A DNA stretch of 64,000 nt from Massariosphaeria phaeospora (lineage: Eukaryota; Ascomycota; Dothideomycetes; Pleosporales). Of the stretch, positions 1,595-29,728 are shown one piece after another. How positions within the stretch are numbered: position 1 is the stretch's first letter; every line of letters begins with the position of its first letter. The stretch spans positions 372,001 through 436,000 of the forward strand of contig JAADJZ010000019.1 of the NCBI GenBank assembly GCA_011032825.1. The letters run 5' to 3'. The notes below the pieces were generated by a model, which was not told where the DNA came from, made no database searches, and saw nothing but the letters and a program-made list of their open reading frames with translations. The position numbers were made by a program, and so were the translations under genes.

Positions 1595-2366
1595 CTAGCC
1601 AAGCACATCCTCTGGATGCGCCTCCGCCTCCTCAACAAACGCCGCATACGCGCCTTTCACCGCGGGCGCGGGCTCGCGCGCCGTCTTGGAAAGGCCTTAG
1701 AGAGTTGGTGAGCTGAGCTGGGGTGCGCTAGCTGAAGCAAGTGGTTCATGCTTACCGTCGCGCTTCGAGGCTACGCCGATGAGCACGGTGGCGACGTCGG
1801 CGGTTGAGGGTGGGGCTGCTGGATGTGGGAGGTGGCGTTAGTCGATTCGTTCTTGGTGTGCCTTGGGGGGAAGAGAGAAAAGGAAGAGCGGGGACAGGGT
1901 AGGAGCGCATACCATGCCGTTTCTCGTCTGCGATGCCCAGGAGCACGGTTGCCACGTCCGCGGTAGAGGCGGAGTCGGAGTTGGAGGCTTCGACTGCTAA
2001 TCGTTTTATCAACACTGAACGAATCCGACACTGAGTGAATCCGACACCGCCGCCCAAAATATCAGGGAGCAGTAGCGTAGGAGTGGCGAGCGAGGCAGCA
2101 CAGCACAGCACAGCACTTACAGTCTCTCTTGTTCTTCTCCGCTACGCCGATGAGCACTGTGGCTACGTCCGCGACATCGACGTCGACGCCGTGCCAGGGA
2201 CCTGGGGGTGGGTGAGTGAGTGAGTAGGATGATGGGATGATGAGGGAAGGGGGATCGTACCGACGTCGGCGGTGTCGCTTGTTGCTGCCGGGCTAGATAT
2301 AGGGGCTGCGAGGGTGGGGAGCGCGGCGAAGAGGGCGGCGAGGAGGCGGAGGGAGAGGGTCTTCAT
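1595..2366 (-). CDS. Secreted Kex2-processed repeat protein (candidate RiPP precursor)
   Basis: Exons on the minus strand: 2366..2261, 2201..2121, 1993..1913, 1818..1756, 1695..1595; 432 nt, 143 aa. The donors are GTACGA, GTAAGT, GTATGC and GTAAGC and every intron is phase 1, so the frame closes exactly at TAG. Residues 1-21 form a signal peptide (MKTLSLRLLAALFAALP then TLAA). Three repeats follow, with ADVATVLIGVA, ADVATVLLGIA and ADVATVLIGVA, each followed within 2-5 residues by Lys-Arg. The C-terminal tail (KGAYAAFVEEAEAHPEDVLG) has no repeat. Signal peptide plus repeats ending in KR is the layout of fungal Kex2-processed precursors such as ustiloxin, phomopsin and victorin precursors. The head-to-head neighbour is a UstYa-family gene, whose enzymes modify such precursors. 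The repeats contain no Tyr, so the modified residues would differ from classic dikaritins. An alpha-pheromone precursor is less likely because no Trp/Cys-rich decapeptide is present. Gene structure is inferred; no transcript is available. Confidence 0.72.
1756..2201 (-). repeat. Three symmetric repeat exons, one core repeat each
   Basis: Exons 2201..2121 (81 nt), 1993..1913 (81 nt) and 1818..1756 (63 nt) each begin and end in phase 1 and each carry one copy of the ADVATVL-type repeat plus one Lys-Arg. The last two have tandem CAG acceptors (TTAGCAG at 2000-1994, CAGCAG at 1821-1816), so one residue may be optional. Copies could be added or lost as whole exons without breaking the frame. Confidence 0.7.
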
Positions 2367-3639
2367 GGTGATGGGAGGGTGGGGGGTTTGAGAGGTTGGT
2401 GAGGGGTGTGTGGGATAGATGGGTGGATGGATGAGTGAATGGATGGATGGACGAGAGAAAGAGAGGCAAGTTGGGGTTATATATAGGAGGAACGAACTAT
2501 TCCTTTCGGTCAGAGTTTTGCAGGACTGGTTTGCTTTGGTTTCCTTTGGTTGATCCGCTACCCATTTGCCGCATTCAGGAGGTGGGAGGCGCTGCACTGC
2601 AGATGCTATCTGGTCGCAGGGCCTGAGGGGGCAGGTCACAGGAGGTGGGGTGTACGTACGTGGGTGGGTGAGTTGCGTGCTGGATCAGGAGGGGGACGGG
2701 GAAGTGGATGGAGAGATGCGGTGCTTGCTAACTGAAAAACAGCGCGTGATCGATTATTGAGCATGCATATTTGCATGATAGGTAGGCATGTAGTCCAAAC
2801 GCTTTGATCCTTCGGTCTATCTATTTCGTTGCTATGGTGTTGAGCTGTGACGGAGGACGTCTGAGCGGGCTGAGTTGTTTCCACACCCGTTTAAGCCGTT
2901 TACTGAGTACACATCACAGCATATTCTCTGTGAAGAATCTTCACCGTCATCCATTGTTTGTCTTTCAACTGCGAAGAATAGTTCGCGGTGTTGAGGTCGC
3001 TGTTGCTGCAGTGTGGTTCAAGCGTAGCGTCGTGTGTCGTTGCTGGCGTCAGCATATCGCGTACTACCCCACACTGCACTATACACATGTACGGTGGTAG
3101 GCTGGATCCGCCTATGCGGAGGATAGGATATGCTACTAACGTATGCATGTATACATGTATGCAGCGTATCCTCCATCCCTATAGGTAATTCCCGGAATCA
3201 TGCAAGCAAGCCGATGTGGTAAGTCTTGGCTCGACCACCTACATGAGGAGATCTACTACTGCTGCATGCGCGAGGTATGTGCTTACGAGAGTGCGGAAGA
3301 GGTGGTTGTGTTGTGTACATCGGAGGTGGTGGGGCTGTTGTCTTCGGTGACTAACGACTGCTTGCATGCGTCGTGGTTTGCTTCGTGCATTCTGGAATGT
3401 TAACATTGACTTGAAGGGGAAAATGGTGCTTGTTGATGTCGGCATATCGTAGTTGTGTGAAGCGGGGTAGAGTGGGTGACAGCGATATATGCGCGTTGTT
3501 CTGGATCTGTCCGAGGGTAGATGGGTAGAGAAGAGGGTCGACTCTTTGGCGTCTGCACATTTCCTTCTCCCCCTCCCTTTTCTTTTCCAGCTCGGACACT
3601 GGGTTTCCTCTTGAATATCTCCTTGTCTCGTCACTTGAG
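2367..3639. other. Divergent promoter region of precursor and UstYa genes
   Basis: 1.27 kb between two head-to-head start codons. Several 60-100-codon frames exist here but none has recognisable motifs or plausible splicing, so I call no gene. It is the expected place for shared control of the two genes. GGAT/GTGA simple repeats lie at 2400-2450. No specific operator can be named from sequence alone. Confidence 0.5.
2477..2485 (-). promoter_or_regulatory. TATA box of the precursor gene
   Basis: TATATATAA on the minus strand, 111 bases before the proposed ATG at 2366. The distance suits a short fungal 5' leader and supports the chosen start. The sequence between holds GGAT-rich simple repeats (about 2410-2450). 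Confidence 0.5.
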
Positions 3640-4682
3640 ATGTTCTCCAAGACATTGAGCATGTTCCGCTCCAAAACAGTCTCTCAACACTACGCGCCTC
3701 TGGACGCTGAAGCCCTTCTCAAGACGCGGGACAGCTCTGAAGCTGACTCGGATGTCTACGTCCCATCGAGCCGTCACAGCAAGCTATACTCGTTAGCAAT
3801 GACTGCTGCTCTGTTTTTCTTTATGGCACTTTCGTTGCTGCTTGGAGTTGCGTCTATCTACGAAGATCCGTCAGTGGCGGAGTGTGTGGACAAGACGAGT
3901 ATCTGGTGTAAGTCCTCACTCTCAGGACAATACAACTCGGTCCATGCTGATTGTGGAATTCAATAGCGCCCGCAAATGCTGTCGTCAAGTACGAAGAGTT
4001 CGATTTCGACAATGAGTTTGGGCACAAGACGAAATATCGAGGGCCGCCGACGCCTGAGTTGGAAAAGGAGTGGGAGAAGTTGTGGTGGTGTAAGTGGTTA
4101 TACCCTTTTGATTCTTTCTGTTCGTTGCGTAATCTAATGCTGATGGGAGTTGCGAATTAGTTAACGGCGTACGCTTCCCAGCAGACAAGCTGAATTTGCT
4201 CAACCGTACCACAGATCTGGGAGCAGGTCGCAAGCCCCGCGAAGCTCTTGATGGCAAAGGCGGCTACCACGTCATGATTGACGTCTTCCACCAACTGCAC
4301 TGTCTTGTCAGTACAATCCAGTATATCCTCCCATTCCGGCAACGCCTAACTCATCCTCCAGAATCTCCTCCGCCAAGCGACATGGCTCCCCTACTACCGC
4401 ACACATACACACATCGTGCGCACGCCCGCTCCATTCTCCGACAGCGACGTCGGTATCCGGCTGCATCTGGATCATTGCATCGAGACTTTGAGGCTGACGC
4501 TCATGTGCCATGGAGACACGACGCCAAGTCTCATGATGGAGGATCCGGAGAGTCCGTTAGGAGTGAGCACGGATTTTAGCAGCCATCGCATGTGCAGGAA
4601 CTTCGAGGGGATTAGGGAGTGGACGAGGGAGAATCAGATTGTGGGGACGAAGGCGATGGAGTGGGAACCTGAGAAGAACTAA
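3640..4682 (+). CDS. UstYa-family oxidase (DUF3328)
   Basis: Exons 3640..3907, 3967..4089, 4161..4306 and 4362..4682, 285 aa. Donors are GTAAGT, GTAAGT and GTCAGT; all joins keep the frame. The protein has a cytosolic N-terminus of about 50 residues, one membrane segment near residues 52-72 (LAMTAALFFFMALSLLLGVA), then a lumenal domain. The two defining metal-binding motifs are intact: HQLHC near residues 175-179 and HLDHCIETLR about 40 residues later. The exon-1/2 join reads WSPANAVVKYEEFDF, matching the family's conserved block. UstYa proteins (UstYa/UstYb of ustiloxin, PhomY of phomopsin, CctP2/CctR of cyclochlorotine) oxidise, cyclise, hydroxylate or chlorinate secreted peptides. It lies head to head with the Lys-Arg repeat precursor, which makes that precursor the likely substrate (inference). 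No second UstYa, P450, methyltransferase or peptidase gene is seen beside it, so the set is minimal. Confidence 0.9.
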
Positions 4683-4825
4683 AGTTGAAATAGCCGTGTA
4701 GGTAGCACGTGCCTCGAACAATAACGGAATGAAATTAACTTTCTCATGGTAGATTGTTATTGTGTGTTACCGAATAGGCCTAGTATTCGTAGCTTCATGA
4801 CAACGCCTTGGCGTCACCGCACATA

Positions 4826-4991
4826 CAAAGGGCAAACTCCATAACTCTGGCGGTCACGTGCAGATAGGGGTAGGAACATCAAACTTTTTCGCACCAAAAT
4901 AAACGAGGGGCAGTTAATGCAGCACATCTGATTCGTCAGCGTCTCCGCTTGGCACGCACGTGAACGCCAGAGTTATTGAGCTTGCCCTTTG
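4826..4991. mobile_element. MITE-like element, 35-bp inverted repeats, TA target sites
   Basis: The left arm 4826-4860 and the right arm 4957-4991 are inverted repeats with 3 mismatches in 35 bases, starting CAAAGGGCAA. Each outer end is flanked by TA (4824-4825 and 4992-4993), the target duplication of Tc1/mariner elements. The 96-bp interior has no coding capacity. Each arm ends internally at a CACGTG palindrome (4855-4860, 4957-4962). The element is 166 bp, a typical MITE size, and sits in the promoter of the next gene, with a TATA-like TATATAA starting 4 bp after the right TA. Confidence 0.72.
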
Positions 4992-4996
4992 TATCA

Positions 4997-5165: not shown

Positions 5166-5950
5166 ATGGCTTCAAATACGAGCACCGATTTGCTATGCCC
5201 CGACTGGATATTCTCCAATAACAGCAATGTCCAGTGAGTTATTAAGCCATAGTCACGAAGAACAATACTAATCAATCCAGCGCATGCAAAGACCGCGGAT
5301 GGTTCACCGATTACACTCCATTCGAGTCTCTCGCAGGCTTCATCTATGGCGATAGTACCATGCCGGTCGCGGGAGTCGGTAATGTTGTACTTCCTGTGAA
5401 AAGGTCACCCAACGCATCCGGTCCCAATGCCCATGGAACGCTCCTTCTCAAAAATGTTCTCCATTGCCCATCTTCTATCTGCAACATCCTCGGATACAAT
5501 GAAGAGTTCGAATCGGATTATAGCGTCATGACAGGTCAGTCTACAAATGGGAGCTCTAAAGGATCAATCCGTGACTACCAGGGACGAAACGTAGCGTATT
5601 TCGATCCCAATCATCGCATGTTCAACATCAAGCTGAGCGGGCCACCTGTCGGACCAGTTACTGGACCAAGTACGTTATCAGCAGGCGGTTTGTACATGAT
5701 CAATGTGCTTTGGGCTGACACGGAGCGCCACCGTTGGGATACACATCAACAGAGCGTAGCCCGGGAACCTTCAAACGGACAACATTCCCAGTCTTGTGCG
5801 TCGTATACTACTGAGGAGAAACAATGGCTTAAGGACAACTATAGTGACGAGTACCACTTTCTTCAGCAGCATGGTCTAAGCATTTACAAGGAGGAAGACC
5901 GCGACGATGGACGAGCTATAGTCCGCCAGATTATGGCCCAGATGGAGTAA
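5166..5950 (+). CDS. Domesticated Pol-type beta-barrel domain protein, copy A
   Basis: Exons 5166..5233 and 5281..5950 (47-bp intron, GTGAGT and CCAG), 245 aa. The N-terminus reads LCPDWIFSNNSNVHACKDRGWF, then YGDSTMPVAGVGNVVLPVK and LKNVLHCPSSICNILG. This follows the beta-barrel domain found next to the protease of TNT1-94/copia-type Pol proteins (WI-D-SGA..H..CxDR..F, xGDG..LPV.G.GTV, L.NVLxVPSL..NLLS). The catalytic Asp-Ser-Gly is replaced by Ser-Asn-Asn, and no integrase or reverse transcriptase follows, so this is not an active element. The C-terminus (KQWLKDNYSDEYHFLQQHGL) is shared with the next gene, and the two are tandem paralogues. Function is unknown; an adopted host gene is an inference from the intact frame and conserved intron position. 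Confidence 0.7.
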
Positions 5951-6228: not shown

Positions 6229-7304
6229 ATGGCTTCAAGCTCATCCGATCGGCTATGCCCAGATTGGGTCTTCGCCAAATTGAGCAATGTCCAGTAAGAT
6301 CCCGTCCAAAGACTTATTAGAGACTGTTTAACATGAACGGCAGTCTATGCAAGGACCGCGGTTGGTTCACCGACTACATCCCCTTTCACTCTTTCGTCAT
6401 GTCAACCAATGCCAAAAATTCAGTCTTTATCGGAGATGAAGAAAGACAGTGGGTTGCGGGCATAGGTACTGTGGCTCTGCCCGTGAAGAAGTCCCCAGGC
6501 CGCACAGGATCCGGTACCAACGTACACCTTGTTCTCCACAACGTCGTTCACTGTCCATCCCTCATATGTAATGTCTTTAGCAACGCTGCTGCATCCGGCC
6601 AAGGCTATAGTATCGACCTCACCGAAACCGGAAAGACCAGAGGCAAGATCACGGATACAGAAGGGCATACCATGGCACACTTCGGTCCAAACAAGGCCTA
6701 CCACCAGATCCTGCTGAGTGGGCACACACCTGGTCCACTCGTAGAAAACAGATTCCTAATGAGCGGCTTGATGGCAGTGGTACACTGGCCACCACGAGAA
6801 TATGTACGCTTGAAAGCATACAAACAGGGTCATCCTGTTTCCCCTCCAAATCTCTCTTTGTCAACAAGGAATCTGGAAATAAAGTATTACGAAAGTAAAA
6901 AGTTTAAGGAGATCGGTATGCCATACGCGGAATACGTGAAATCGCGGGTTCAGCCTTACAAAAGGGATGTATACCACCTTCTACGGGACCGTGAATTGAA
7001 CCTTTTCAAGGAAGACGACCGCGCCAAAGCTAGGGCTGTGATCCGAGAATTCATAGACTCTCAAAATCAAAAGATCGTCGGGGCATTGAAGGTGGAGCCC
7101 ATTACACCTACTATCGAGCATGCATCTTCAGCATCCGGCGGAAACCAGACGAAGAACTTGGCCGATTGTCTCTTCATCGGAAATACCGTACGCATGGTCA
7201 AGGAACATTTCGGCACTGCGGACAACTTCCTGCACGAGTTTGGGCTGGATCCTTCTGAGCTCGACCAATGGAAAATGGCGCGGCGATCGCAGGAGGAATG
7301 TTGA
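6229..7304 (+). CDS. Domesticated Pol-type beta-barrel domain protein, copy B
   Basis: Exons 6229..6293 and 6344..7304; the intron sits at the same codon (Val-His junction) and phase as in copy A. About 341 aa. It shares LCPDW(V/I)F, SNVH.CKDRGWFTDY, the GIGTVALPVKK block, the NVVHCPSLICN block and a C-terminal KRDVYHLLRDRELNLFKEDDR segment with copy A. Positions equivalent to the protease Asp-Ser-Gly read Ala-Lys-Leu. It has an extra C-terminal region of about 90 residues. Identity to copy A is clear but not high, so the duplication is old. The stop at 7302-7304 is followed in the +1 frame by a D/S/C-rich repeat ending at 7498, so a single-base difference may have cut off an acidic tail. The 278-bp gap from copy A holds nothing else I can name. 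Confidence 0.68.
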
Positions 7305-27973: not shown

Positions 27974-29728
27974 ATGGCGACCACCGCGCTGCTGGAGTGT
28001 CCGATCTGCGACTTCACTGTTCTGCCCGATAGCGAATATGTGCTGCAACTGCACTTTGAACAGGTGCATACTACGGATTCGCCTTTCCGAATCGAAGGGG
28101 AGGAGGTGTTGCCGCCGCCGTTGCCTCCAAGACCTTCACCTTCCATAACACAACTAAACGACGACAGCGCAGCTTCTTCAGAAGAAGAGGAGGATACGGT
28201 CTTGCCACCGCTTCCACCTAGGCCTTCCTCCAAGTCCAAGCAGCCAAAACACGACGGAGACACGCCTTCCTCACGCGAGGACCAAGGCACGGTCTTGTGC
28301 CCCGAACTCAACTGCGGCGAGCTTGTTCTTCTCACCGACTTCAACGACCATCTCGATTATCACTCCGCAGAAACATTATCATTTGACGAGTCTACCGGAA
28401 AGTATCATTCTCATCAGCCAGCCAATATGCCCGGCGCTACCGCGGATCCCAAGGGATCATCGAAACCCTCATTCCTAGAGCGGAAGTCCAGTCCTGGCCT
28501 GCCGGATGCTTCGCACAGAAATGAGGATGCAAATCGCAAGCTCAAGAAGAAGGCCCATCGGGGCAGGGGTGACTCTATGAGCAGCGAGAAGAGCACACTG
28601 TCCCGCAGCATCCTCAGCTTCAATCCGTTTGCGAAGGCAAACAAGATGGTCAAACCACCACCAGGCAGCGTAAGACTTGGTGTAAGTCAGCGTCCCTGCT
28701 GTGGCGATGTGGTGCTAACGGCTGCTAGAAAGATGAACTCGGTCCGCACGCCTGGGAAGATCGCATGCCAAAGTGGTTACACGAACAGCTCGCTGCTGGG
28801 CCCAAGATCACCAACGTCAACCGGATCGGCCGAGACGGACGCCTCATCAAGCAGGAGCAAGTGCAAAACGAGACTCCAGGCATCATCCCGATTCTCGCTC
28901 AGCTCTCTGCCATAGATCACACCGTCAAGGAGGCCTATTACTGCCACCCATCTACCCTTCACATTGGCAAAACGCCCAAGGAAGGTGGCTTCTGCGGTTA
29001 TAGAAATATCCAGATGCTCGTCTCCTACATCCAAGGTGCTAAAGCGCAAGGCTTTGAGGAGTTCCCTGGACGTACGCCAGGCATTCTGAAGGTCCAGGAC
29101 CTCATTGAGAGTGCATGGGACAAGGGTATCAACGAGATTGGCCGAGCGCAGACGGGCGGTATCAAGGGCACCCGGAAGTATATCGGTACTCCAGAGGTAG
29201 GGAGCCCAATCTTCCATGTTGTGCTTCACTGACACATGCCCAGGCTCAAGCATTTTTCCTCGGCACGCAGATTGACTGCGCCGTCGAGTTGTTCACCGAC
29301 TCGCCCGACGGGCAAATCGAAGCGCACGAACAGCTCTTCTCCGCCATTGAACAGTACTTCGCACAAGCCGCTTTCAAGGACGACTCGAATGTCTACAAAA
29401 CCCTTCTACCACCCATCTATCTTCAACAACCAGGACACTCGACTACTATTGTCGGATTCGAGCGCCGTATCAACGGCTCTTGCAATCTCATAGTTCATGA
29501 CCCTATGTATCATACTAGTCCCGCCATGCACCGATTGCTCGGACGAAGGAATATCAGGACGGCCAGACCAGAGGTTCTGCACGCCTATCGGAGGGGGGCT
29601 AAGCAACTGAAAAAGCATGCCGCTTTTGAAGTTCTCATGTGAGTCTGTTGATACTTTGAACTGACCTACTTACTGATAACTGTAGGCTTACGGCTCACCC
29701 GCCTCTGTTTCCCGCTTGGGATGTATGA
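27974..29728 (+). CDS. ZUFSP/ZUP1-type deubiquitinase (peptidase C78)
   Basis: Exons 27974..28681, 28729..29196, 29244..29638, 29686..29728; 537 aa if it stops at TGA 29726. Two C2H2-like fingers lie at the N-terminus (CPICDF...LQLHFEQVH, and CPELNCGEL...FNDHLDYH), then a disordered basic linker, then the C78 domain. The catalytic Cys is in EGGFCGYRNIQ (near residue 324), the His in GHSTTIVGFE (near 455) and the Asp in LIVHDPM (near 477). Family members cleave K63-linked polyubiquitin in genome maintenance. The protein ends soon after the domain (LTAHPPLFPAWDV). The GTATGA that overlaps the stop could also act as a splice donor into the next frame, making a longer protein; see the following entry. 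Confidence 0.88.

What the first reader, a model, noticed from the sequence alone, without database searches (positions are those of the whole stretch)
1595..4682. Candidate undescribed RiPP locus: Lys-Arg repeat precursor head to head with a UstYa oxidase
A five-exon minus-strand gene encodes a signal peptide, three ADVATVL-type repeats each ending in Lys-Arg, and a tail. Its start codon faces, across 1.27 kb, a complete DUF3328 protein with both HxxHC-type motifs (HQLHC and DHCIETLR). Seen directly: the repeats, KR sites, the motifs and in-phase splice sites. Known: ustiloxin, phomopsin, asperipin and victorin-type pathways pair such precursors with UstYa proteins. Inferred: that the two genes form a biosynthetic unit. 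The precursor is split into exons of 63-106 nt, so open-reading-frame searches would miss it. No further tailoring gene is obvious, making this a very small locus.
Basis: partly seen in the sequence, partly recalled or inferred. Interest (0 to 1): 0.88.

Follow-up and report, generated by a model that had tools for sequence, protein, structure and literature searches.

The report
Repeat peptide gene beside copper oxidase
A fungus carries a gene for a secreted-looking protein built of three near-identical short peptides with cutting sites, next to a gene for a copper enzyme of a family that modifies such peptides elsewhere; the pair is probably a small peptide pathway of a known general type, but that the enzyme acts on these peptides is not shown.

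Summary
The minus-strand gene (2366-1595) has five exons joined by four phase-1 introns and encodes a signal-peptide-like start, three ADVATVL(I/L)G(V/I)A repeats each followed by KR, and a tail. The plus-strand gene (3640-4682) encodes a complete UstYa/DUF3328 protein (Pfam 4.9e-50) with both HxxHC motifs. The organism is Massariosphaeria phaeospora, whose precursor is already a public hypothetical protein. Lojkania enalia and Westerdykella ornata carry relatives: 9 of 9 repeats keep the core, 8 of 9 are followed by KR, and the tail is conserved. This is a real, conserved Kex2-processed repeat protein (KEP). That the neighbouring UstYa modifies its peptides is plausible, not shown. For: head-to-head adjacency, a pairing common in Ascomycota, and two further KR-repeat genes beside UstYa genes in this genome. 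Against: the core has no Tyr, Trp, Phe, His or Cys; no UstYa named from the other two species is among the 120 listed homologues; no tyrosinase match on the contig; no oxidative tailoring family among the neighbouring frames scanned. New member of a known kind, with a one-peptide-per-exon layout and an aromatic-free core.

The parts
2261..2366 (-). Exon 1 of the precursor: ATG at 2366, signal-peptide-like start MKTLSLRLLAALFAALPTLAAP, then pro-region
   Evidence: model; 99% match to public protein P0001. Signal peptide judged by eye.
2121..2201 (-). Exon 2: repeat 1, ADVATVLIGVA, then EKNKR|D
   Evidence: repeat conserved in P0002 and P0003
1913..1993 (-). Exon 3: repeat 2, ADVATVLLGIA, then DEKR|H. 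The public model starts it 3 nt earlier, at 1996 (tandem acceptor)
1756..1818 (-). Exon 4: repeat 3, ADVATVLIGVA, then SKR|D
1595..1695 (-). Exon 5: C-terminal tail ending in KGAYAAFVEEAEAHPEDVLG and the TAG stop; conserved across the three species
2367..3639 (.). 1,273-bp intergenic region between the two start codons; possible shared promoter (inferred)
3640..3907 (+). UstYa gene, exon 1: N-terminus and a single hydrophobic stretch, probably a membrane helix
   Evidence: membrane helix judged by eye
3967..4089 (+). UstYa gene, exon 2
4161..4306 (+). UstYa gene, exon 3; ends just after the HQLHC motif
4362..4682 (+). UstYa gene, exon 4; HLDHC motif and the conserved C228 and C257

Best explanation
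The minus-strand gene encodes a Kex2-processed repeat protein. It enters the secretory pathway through its signal peptide, Kex2 cuts after the KR that follows each repeat, and trimming of the basic ends releases peptides that share an ADVATVLIGVA core. The membrane-bound UstYa protein encoded head to head, with its catalytic domain in the lumen, then oxidises them with two coppers held by HxxHC(x)nHxxHC. Because the core has no aromatic, His or Cys residue, the likeliest chemistry is C-H oxidation (hydroxylation or a cross-link) at Thr, Val, Leu, Ile or Ala side chains. Shown: gene structures, repeats, KR sites, conservation, enzyme family and motifs. Inferred: secretion, cleavage, trimming, co-expression, that UstYa acts on this peptide, and the chemistry.
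For: Repeats and tail conserved in three Pleosporales. Between repeats 1 and 3 all 4 differing codons are synonymous; random placement of 4 changes does this in 0.6% of trials. UstYa at 4.9e-50. In 81 aligned sequences (ours and 80 of the 120 listed homologues) H214, H217 and C218 are invariant and H174, H177 and C178 at least 90% conserved. In a model of the closest homologue both motifs lie on helices, as described for CctR (PMC12435403, section 3 read). Umemura 2020 (PMC7329392, section 7 read): 22% of KEP genes, 30.1% in Ascomycota, have a DUF3328 gene within 15 genes, most often the adjacent one. In this genome 3 of 14 UstYa neighbourhoods (240 kb, ours included) hold a KR-repeat triple.
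Against: The 9 repeat cores of the three species have no Y, W, F, H or C; 65.6% of repeats of DUF3328-linked KEPs hold Tyr against 38.2% of unlinked ones. The closest homologue's species, Cenococcum geophilum, gave no precursor hit. Both absences are weak: the search did not list a M. phaeospora UstYa either. No tyrosinase match on C11 (0 of 29), a single UstYa gene on C11, and mostly housekeeping neighbours.
Confidence: 0.52

Rival explanations
1. The precursor is a KEP that releases linear, unmodified secreted peptides (signalling or antimicrobial), and the UstYa gene is an unrelated neighbour or serves another pathway.
For: The core is conserved across species but free of Tyr, Trp, Phe, His and Cys. 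No UstYa named from the other two carriers among the 120 listed homologues. No oxidative or transfer enzyme family in the neighbouring frames scanned. By Umemura's count about 70% of Ascomycota KEPs have no DUF3328 gene within 15 genes.
Against: Chance adjacency is unlikely: about 16 UstYa genes by my grouping of the 26 matches in 42 Mb put a UstYa start within 1.3 kb of a given gene in about 0.1% of cases (my estimate).
Confidence: 0.36
2. The conserved C-terminal tail (KGAYAxFVEEAExHPxD in two species, HGAFAKFVEE... in the third) is the real product or the enzyme's recognition element, and the repeats are spacers or leaders.
For: It is conserved in the three species and is the only strongly conserved part with aromatic residues and His. 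It follows KKR and two residues in Lojkania and SKR in Westerdykella.
Against: The nine repeats are also conserved, with synonymous drift between copies. The M. phaeospora tail follows AR, not a dibasic site.
Confidence: 0.09
3. The gene encodes a secreted repeat protein that is not cleaved in vivo, and the KR pairs are incidental.
For: One Lojkania repeat is followed by ADNK instead of KR, and the spacing from repeat to KR varies.
Against: 8 of 9 repeats in three species are followed by KR within a few residues while the spacers around them diverge.
Confidence: 0.03

Closest known systems
Kex2-processed repeat proteins (KEPs), Le Marquer 2019 (PMC6339444; abstract, sections 9, 10, 17 and passages seen) and Umemura 2020 (PMC7329392; abstract, sections 6, 7, 13 seen)
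   Same: Signal-like start, three near-identical repeats with KR, small precursor, few relatives, DUF3328 gene adjacent as in many Ascomycota KEPs
   Different: Each repeat sits in its own phase-1 exon; aromatic-free core; conserved C-terminal tail. The word 'intron' does not occur in the main text of either paper.
Asperipin-2a type pathway (passages of PMC9233826; PMC7329392 section 7)
   Same: Multicore precursor with a single DUF3328 protein
   Different: Asperipin is cyclised through Tyr side chains; the core here has no Tyr. Its reductase (named in a passage of PMC12048977) was not looked for by name here.
Ustiloxin/phomopsin dikaritins
   Same: Repeat precursor, Kex2 sites, UstYa protein with both HxxHC motifs
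   Different: No Tyr in the core, no tyrosinase match on the contig, one UstYa gene only. The C49 locus of this genome fits that type much better.
CctR, copper-dependent DUF3328 hydroxylase (PMC12435403, section 3 read)
   Same: HxxHC(x)nHxxHC and, by eye, a single membrane helix; shows that the family can hydroxylate an aliphatic carbon
   Different: CctR acts on a non-ribosomal cyclic peptide; the substrate here is unknown

Membership tests
UstYa / DUF3328 (PF11807) | Match above the Pfam gathering score | tested here: met
   4.9e-50, 170.8 bits against 25, profile positions 3-220 of 220
UstYa / DUF3328 (PF11807) | Two HxxHC motifs | tested here: met
   HQLHC 174-178 and HLDHC 214-218; conserved in 81 aligned sequences
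UstYa / DUF3328 (PF11807) | Copper binding, dimerisation, membrane anchoring | not testable with these tools
   One hydrophobic N-terminal stretch seen by eye; no assay possible
Kex2-processed repeat protein (KEP) | At least 3 repeats of at least 8 aa with Kex2 sites (Umemura) | tested here: met
   Three repeats, each followed by KR. No dibasic site precedes repeat 1, and Umemura's own repeat-scoring program was not run.
Kex2-processed repeat protein (KEP) | ER signal peptide | tested here: inconclusive
   Typical by eye here and in Lojkania; no SignalP at hand; the annotated Westerdykella N-terminus is not typical
Dikaritin (ustiloxin/phomopsin type) | DUF3328 gene beside a multicore precursor | tested here: met
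   1,273 bp head to head
Dikaritin (ustiloxin/phomopsin type) | Tyrosine in the core for the cross-link | tested here: not met
   No Tyr in any of the 9 cores
Dikaritin (ustiloxin/phomopsin type) | Tyrosinase and several DUF3328 genes in the cluster | tested here: not met
   0 of 29 tyrosinase matches on C11; the three UstYa matches on C11 belong to this one gene
Dikaritin (ustiloxin/phomopsin type) | Methyltransferase, transporter or peptidase genes | tested here: inconclusive
   No methyltransferase or transporter family in the frames; one Peptidase_C78 match at 29109-29639, 24 kb away. The frames were stop-to-stop and not every exon was scanned.
Dikaritin (ustiloxin/phomopsin type) | A cyclised, oxidised peptide product | not testable with these tools
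   Needs mass spectrometry

The most novel reading that the evidence does not exclude
A two-gene RiPP pathway in which a copper UstYa enzyme oxidises purely aliphatic, aromatic-free peptides, encoded as one peptide per symmetric phase-1 exon, so that skipping or duplicating an exon changes the number of peptides without breaking the frame.
Probability: 0.2. Interest if true: 0.68.

Novelty: new member of a known kind. Interest (0 to 1): 0.42.

Why it matters
If the UstYa does act here, this copper family would be seen to modify a ribosomal peptide whose core has no Tyr, beyond the Tyr-based cross-links of ustiloxins, phomopsins and asperipin, in about the smallest possible locus. If it does not, the precursor family is still a conserved, probably secreted peptide of unknown function in Pleosporales. 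The one-peptide-per-exon layout would give a simple way for copy number to change.

Tried and rejected
Wider family of the precursor: a profile search with the four-row alignment (7,996 candidates scored, a capped set) returned the same three proteins. Pfam has nothing for the M. phaeospora or Westerdykella precursor and only sub-threshold hits for Lojkania. Paralogues: a protein search of the own genome found this gene's five exons and one E=0.72 hit.

Literature: the repeat string gave one paper, unrelated by title (listing only). One search was badly worded ('ripp' matched 'ripple') and useless. Searches (20 of 1,670 papers listed; 25 of 44; 20 of 25; 12 of 763; 15 of 19) were seen as listings; none of the rows ties these species to RiPPs or UstYa. 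I looked for a precedent of introns between repeats in pheromone precursors (17 listed) and checked passages of one paper, which gave none. Le Marquer's motif DADAATxYV[A/V]D looks a little like ADVATVLIGVAD; this was not tested.

Structure: no PDB relative of the UstYa by sequence at E<=10; 0 of 73 Foldseek matches at E<=0.001.

Not testable here: synteny in Lojkania, Westerdykella or Cenococcum, as no fungal genome other than the window's own was at hand.

KR-repeat scan: the triple criterion (at least 9 matching residues) was set after the looser scan, which also gave two-copy pairs in several regions with and without UstYa genes. Of the 14 regions, nine were 20 kb, one 18 kb, three 10 kb and ours 12 kb. 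The unshuffled control is only 72 kb against 240 kb, so its zero hits are weak evidence of enrichment (the same rate would predict about 0.9); the 140 shuffled regions test chance composition only.

Full report
What is there. The window lies at C11:372001-436000 of a 42.08-Mb genome. The precursor's best match is a hypothetical protein of Massariosphaeria phaeospora (BDV95DRAFT_670464), 99% identical over 100% of the query, on a contig of exactly the length of C11, 797,172 bp; so the organism is that fungus (Pleosporales). The public model differs by a tandem acceptor at exon 3. Exons 2, 3 and 4 each carry one repeat and end one codon and one base after its KR, so each is one peptide module, and leaving out any of the three would keep the frame (follows).

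Is it more than chance. Yes. A degenerate pattern for the repeat occurs three times in the whole genome, each time in this gene, against one hit for the reversed pattern. Lojkania enalia and Westerdykella ornata have relatives of 138 and 154 aa with three repeats each; they are the only other proteins found (3 of 385 candidates at E<=10; the same 3). In the three species 9 of 9 repeats keep DV(A/G)TVL and 8 of 9 are followed by KR. The tail is conserved too. Repeats 1 and 3 differ at four codons, all synonymous; random placement of four changes leaves the protein unchanged in 0.6% of trials. For the other two pairs, 8 nucleotide differences cause 2 replacements (1.2% and 1.4% of trials do as well or better). 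This points to selection on the peptide sequence.

The oxidase. The plus-strand gene has four exons and encodes 285 aa, matching PF11807 over nearly the whole profile at 4.9e-50. In 81 aligned sequences (ours and 80 of the 120 listed homologues) HLDHC's H214, H217 and C218 are invariant and HQLHC's H174, H177 and C178 at least 90% conserved. The closest homologue, from Cenococcum geophilum (69% identity over 81% of the query), modelled from 65 sequences, gives mean pLDDT 92.3, and its two motifs, at residues 121-125 and 161-165, lie on helices 118-132 and 155-176. This fits the published account of CctR, where such helices hold two coppers (PMC12435403, section 3 read). The solved-structure library has no relative by sequence at E<=10, and Foldseek gave 0 of 73 matches at E<=0.001.

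Are the two genes a unit: for. Umemura 2020 reports DUF3328 genes within 15 genes of 22% of KEP genes (30.1% in Ascomycota), with the count highest at the adjacent position (PMC7329392 section 7). In this genome the 26 UstYa matches fall, by my grouping, into 14 neighbourhoods with about 16 genes. I scanned all 14 for three KR-bounded repeats: 3 of 14 have them, namely ours, C49 (EV(N/D)YDGIGRGY, KR) and C33 (DEVVGNLWH, KR); 0 of 140 shuffled regions do. The unshuffled control is small (0 in 72 kb against 3 in 240 kb) and by itself proves no enrichment. But with Umemura's average of 5.25 KEPs per Ascomycota strain (abstract) one would expect about 0.03 KEPs in 240 kb of a 42-Mb genome (my estimate); two remain even without ours. 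The C49 locus is a good yardstick: Tyr in the core, UstYa matches on both sides of the repeats and a tyrosinase about 6 kb away, as in ustiloxin-type clusters.

Are the two genes a unit: against. None of the 9 cores has Tyr, Trp, Phe, His or Cys, while 65.6% of repeats in DUF3328-linked KEPs contain Tyr; about a third do not, and ours would be among them. Of the 120 listed UstYa homologues (182 found), 104 carry an organism name and none of these is Lojkania or Westerdykella; no row shows the contig lengths of P0002 or P0003. This is weak, because the search did not list a M. phaeospora UstYa either, so missing gene models escape it. Conversely, Cenococcum gave no precursor. No tyrosinase match lies on C11 (0 of 29). 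I scanned with Pfam all 27 stop-to-stop frames of at least 170 aa listed for 20 kb to the left of the window and window 8-36 kb, plus seven others nearby. They show Ytp1, Ras-type GTPase, class II tRNA synthetase, WAPL, Swi5, UPRTase and GTP cyclohydrolase on the left; Pol_BBD, AAA ATPase, DUF7708, Torus/RRM, G6PD, D-2-hydroxyacid dehydrogenase, myosin and Peptidase_C78 on the right; many have no family. Short exons were not scanned.

How it probably works. Shown: gene structures, repeats, KR sites, conservation, enzyme family and motifs. Inferred: secretion, Kex2 cleavage and trimming, and oxidation in the secretory pathway by the membrane-bound UstYa. Cuts after KR alone would give fragments of 25 (26 in the public model) and 19 residues for repeats 2 and 3 here, and of 20 and 14 for the first two repeats of Lojkania, each holding the ADVATVLIGVA-type core; further trimming is possible. 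Since CctR hydroxylates an aliphatic carbon, an aromatic-free substrate is possible for the family. I put the unit at 0.52 and the linear-peptide rival at 0.36.

Filing. KEP: repeats and Kex2 sites met, signal peptide by eye only. UstYa family: met. Ustiloxin/phomopsin-type dikaritin: Tyr core, tyrosinase and multiple UstYa tested and not met, so it is not filed there, though it may work in the same general way. In size it is closest to the asperipin-2a type. No paper on this precursor was found in the listings, within an open-access library only.

Noticed in passing
G000:C49:61514-61724 (in L025+L026): A likely dikaritin-type locus in the same genome: four EV(N/D)YDGIGRGY repeats, three followed by KR, with UstYa matches on both sides and a tyrosinase match about 6 kb away.
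   Followed up: partly
G000:C33:21182-21356 (in L039): Another KR-repeat gene: four DEVVGNLWH repeats, the first three ending in KR, about 2 kb from a UstYa match.
   Followed up: partly
window 4823-4994: MITE-like element downstream of the UstYa gene: 39-nt inverted repeats, 92% complementary, 94 nt apart; four further similar places in the genome at 78-83% identity, one of them partial.
   Followed up: partly
window 5279-5950 and 6321-7304: Two neighbouring similar frames with marginal matches to the retroelement Pol beta-barrel domain (PF22936, 27.5 and 27.4 bits against a cut-off of 27); possibly domesticated element pieces.
   Followed up: no
P0003 (Westerdykella ornata): The annotated N-terminus of the Westerdykella precursor has no typical signal peptide by eye, perhaps a wrong first exon in the public model.
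   Followed up: no
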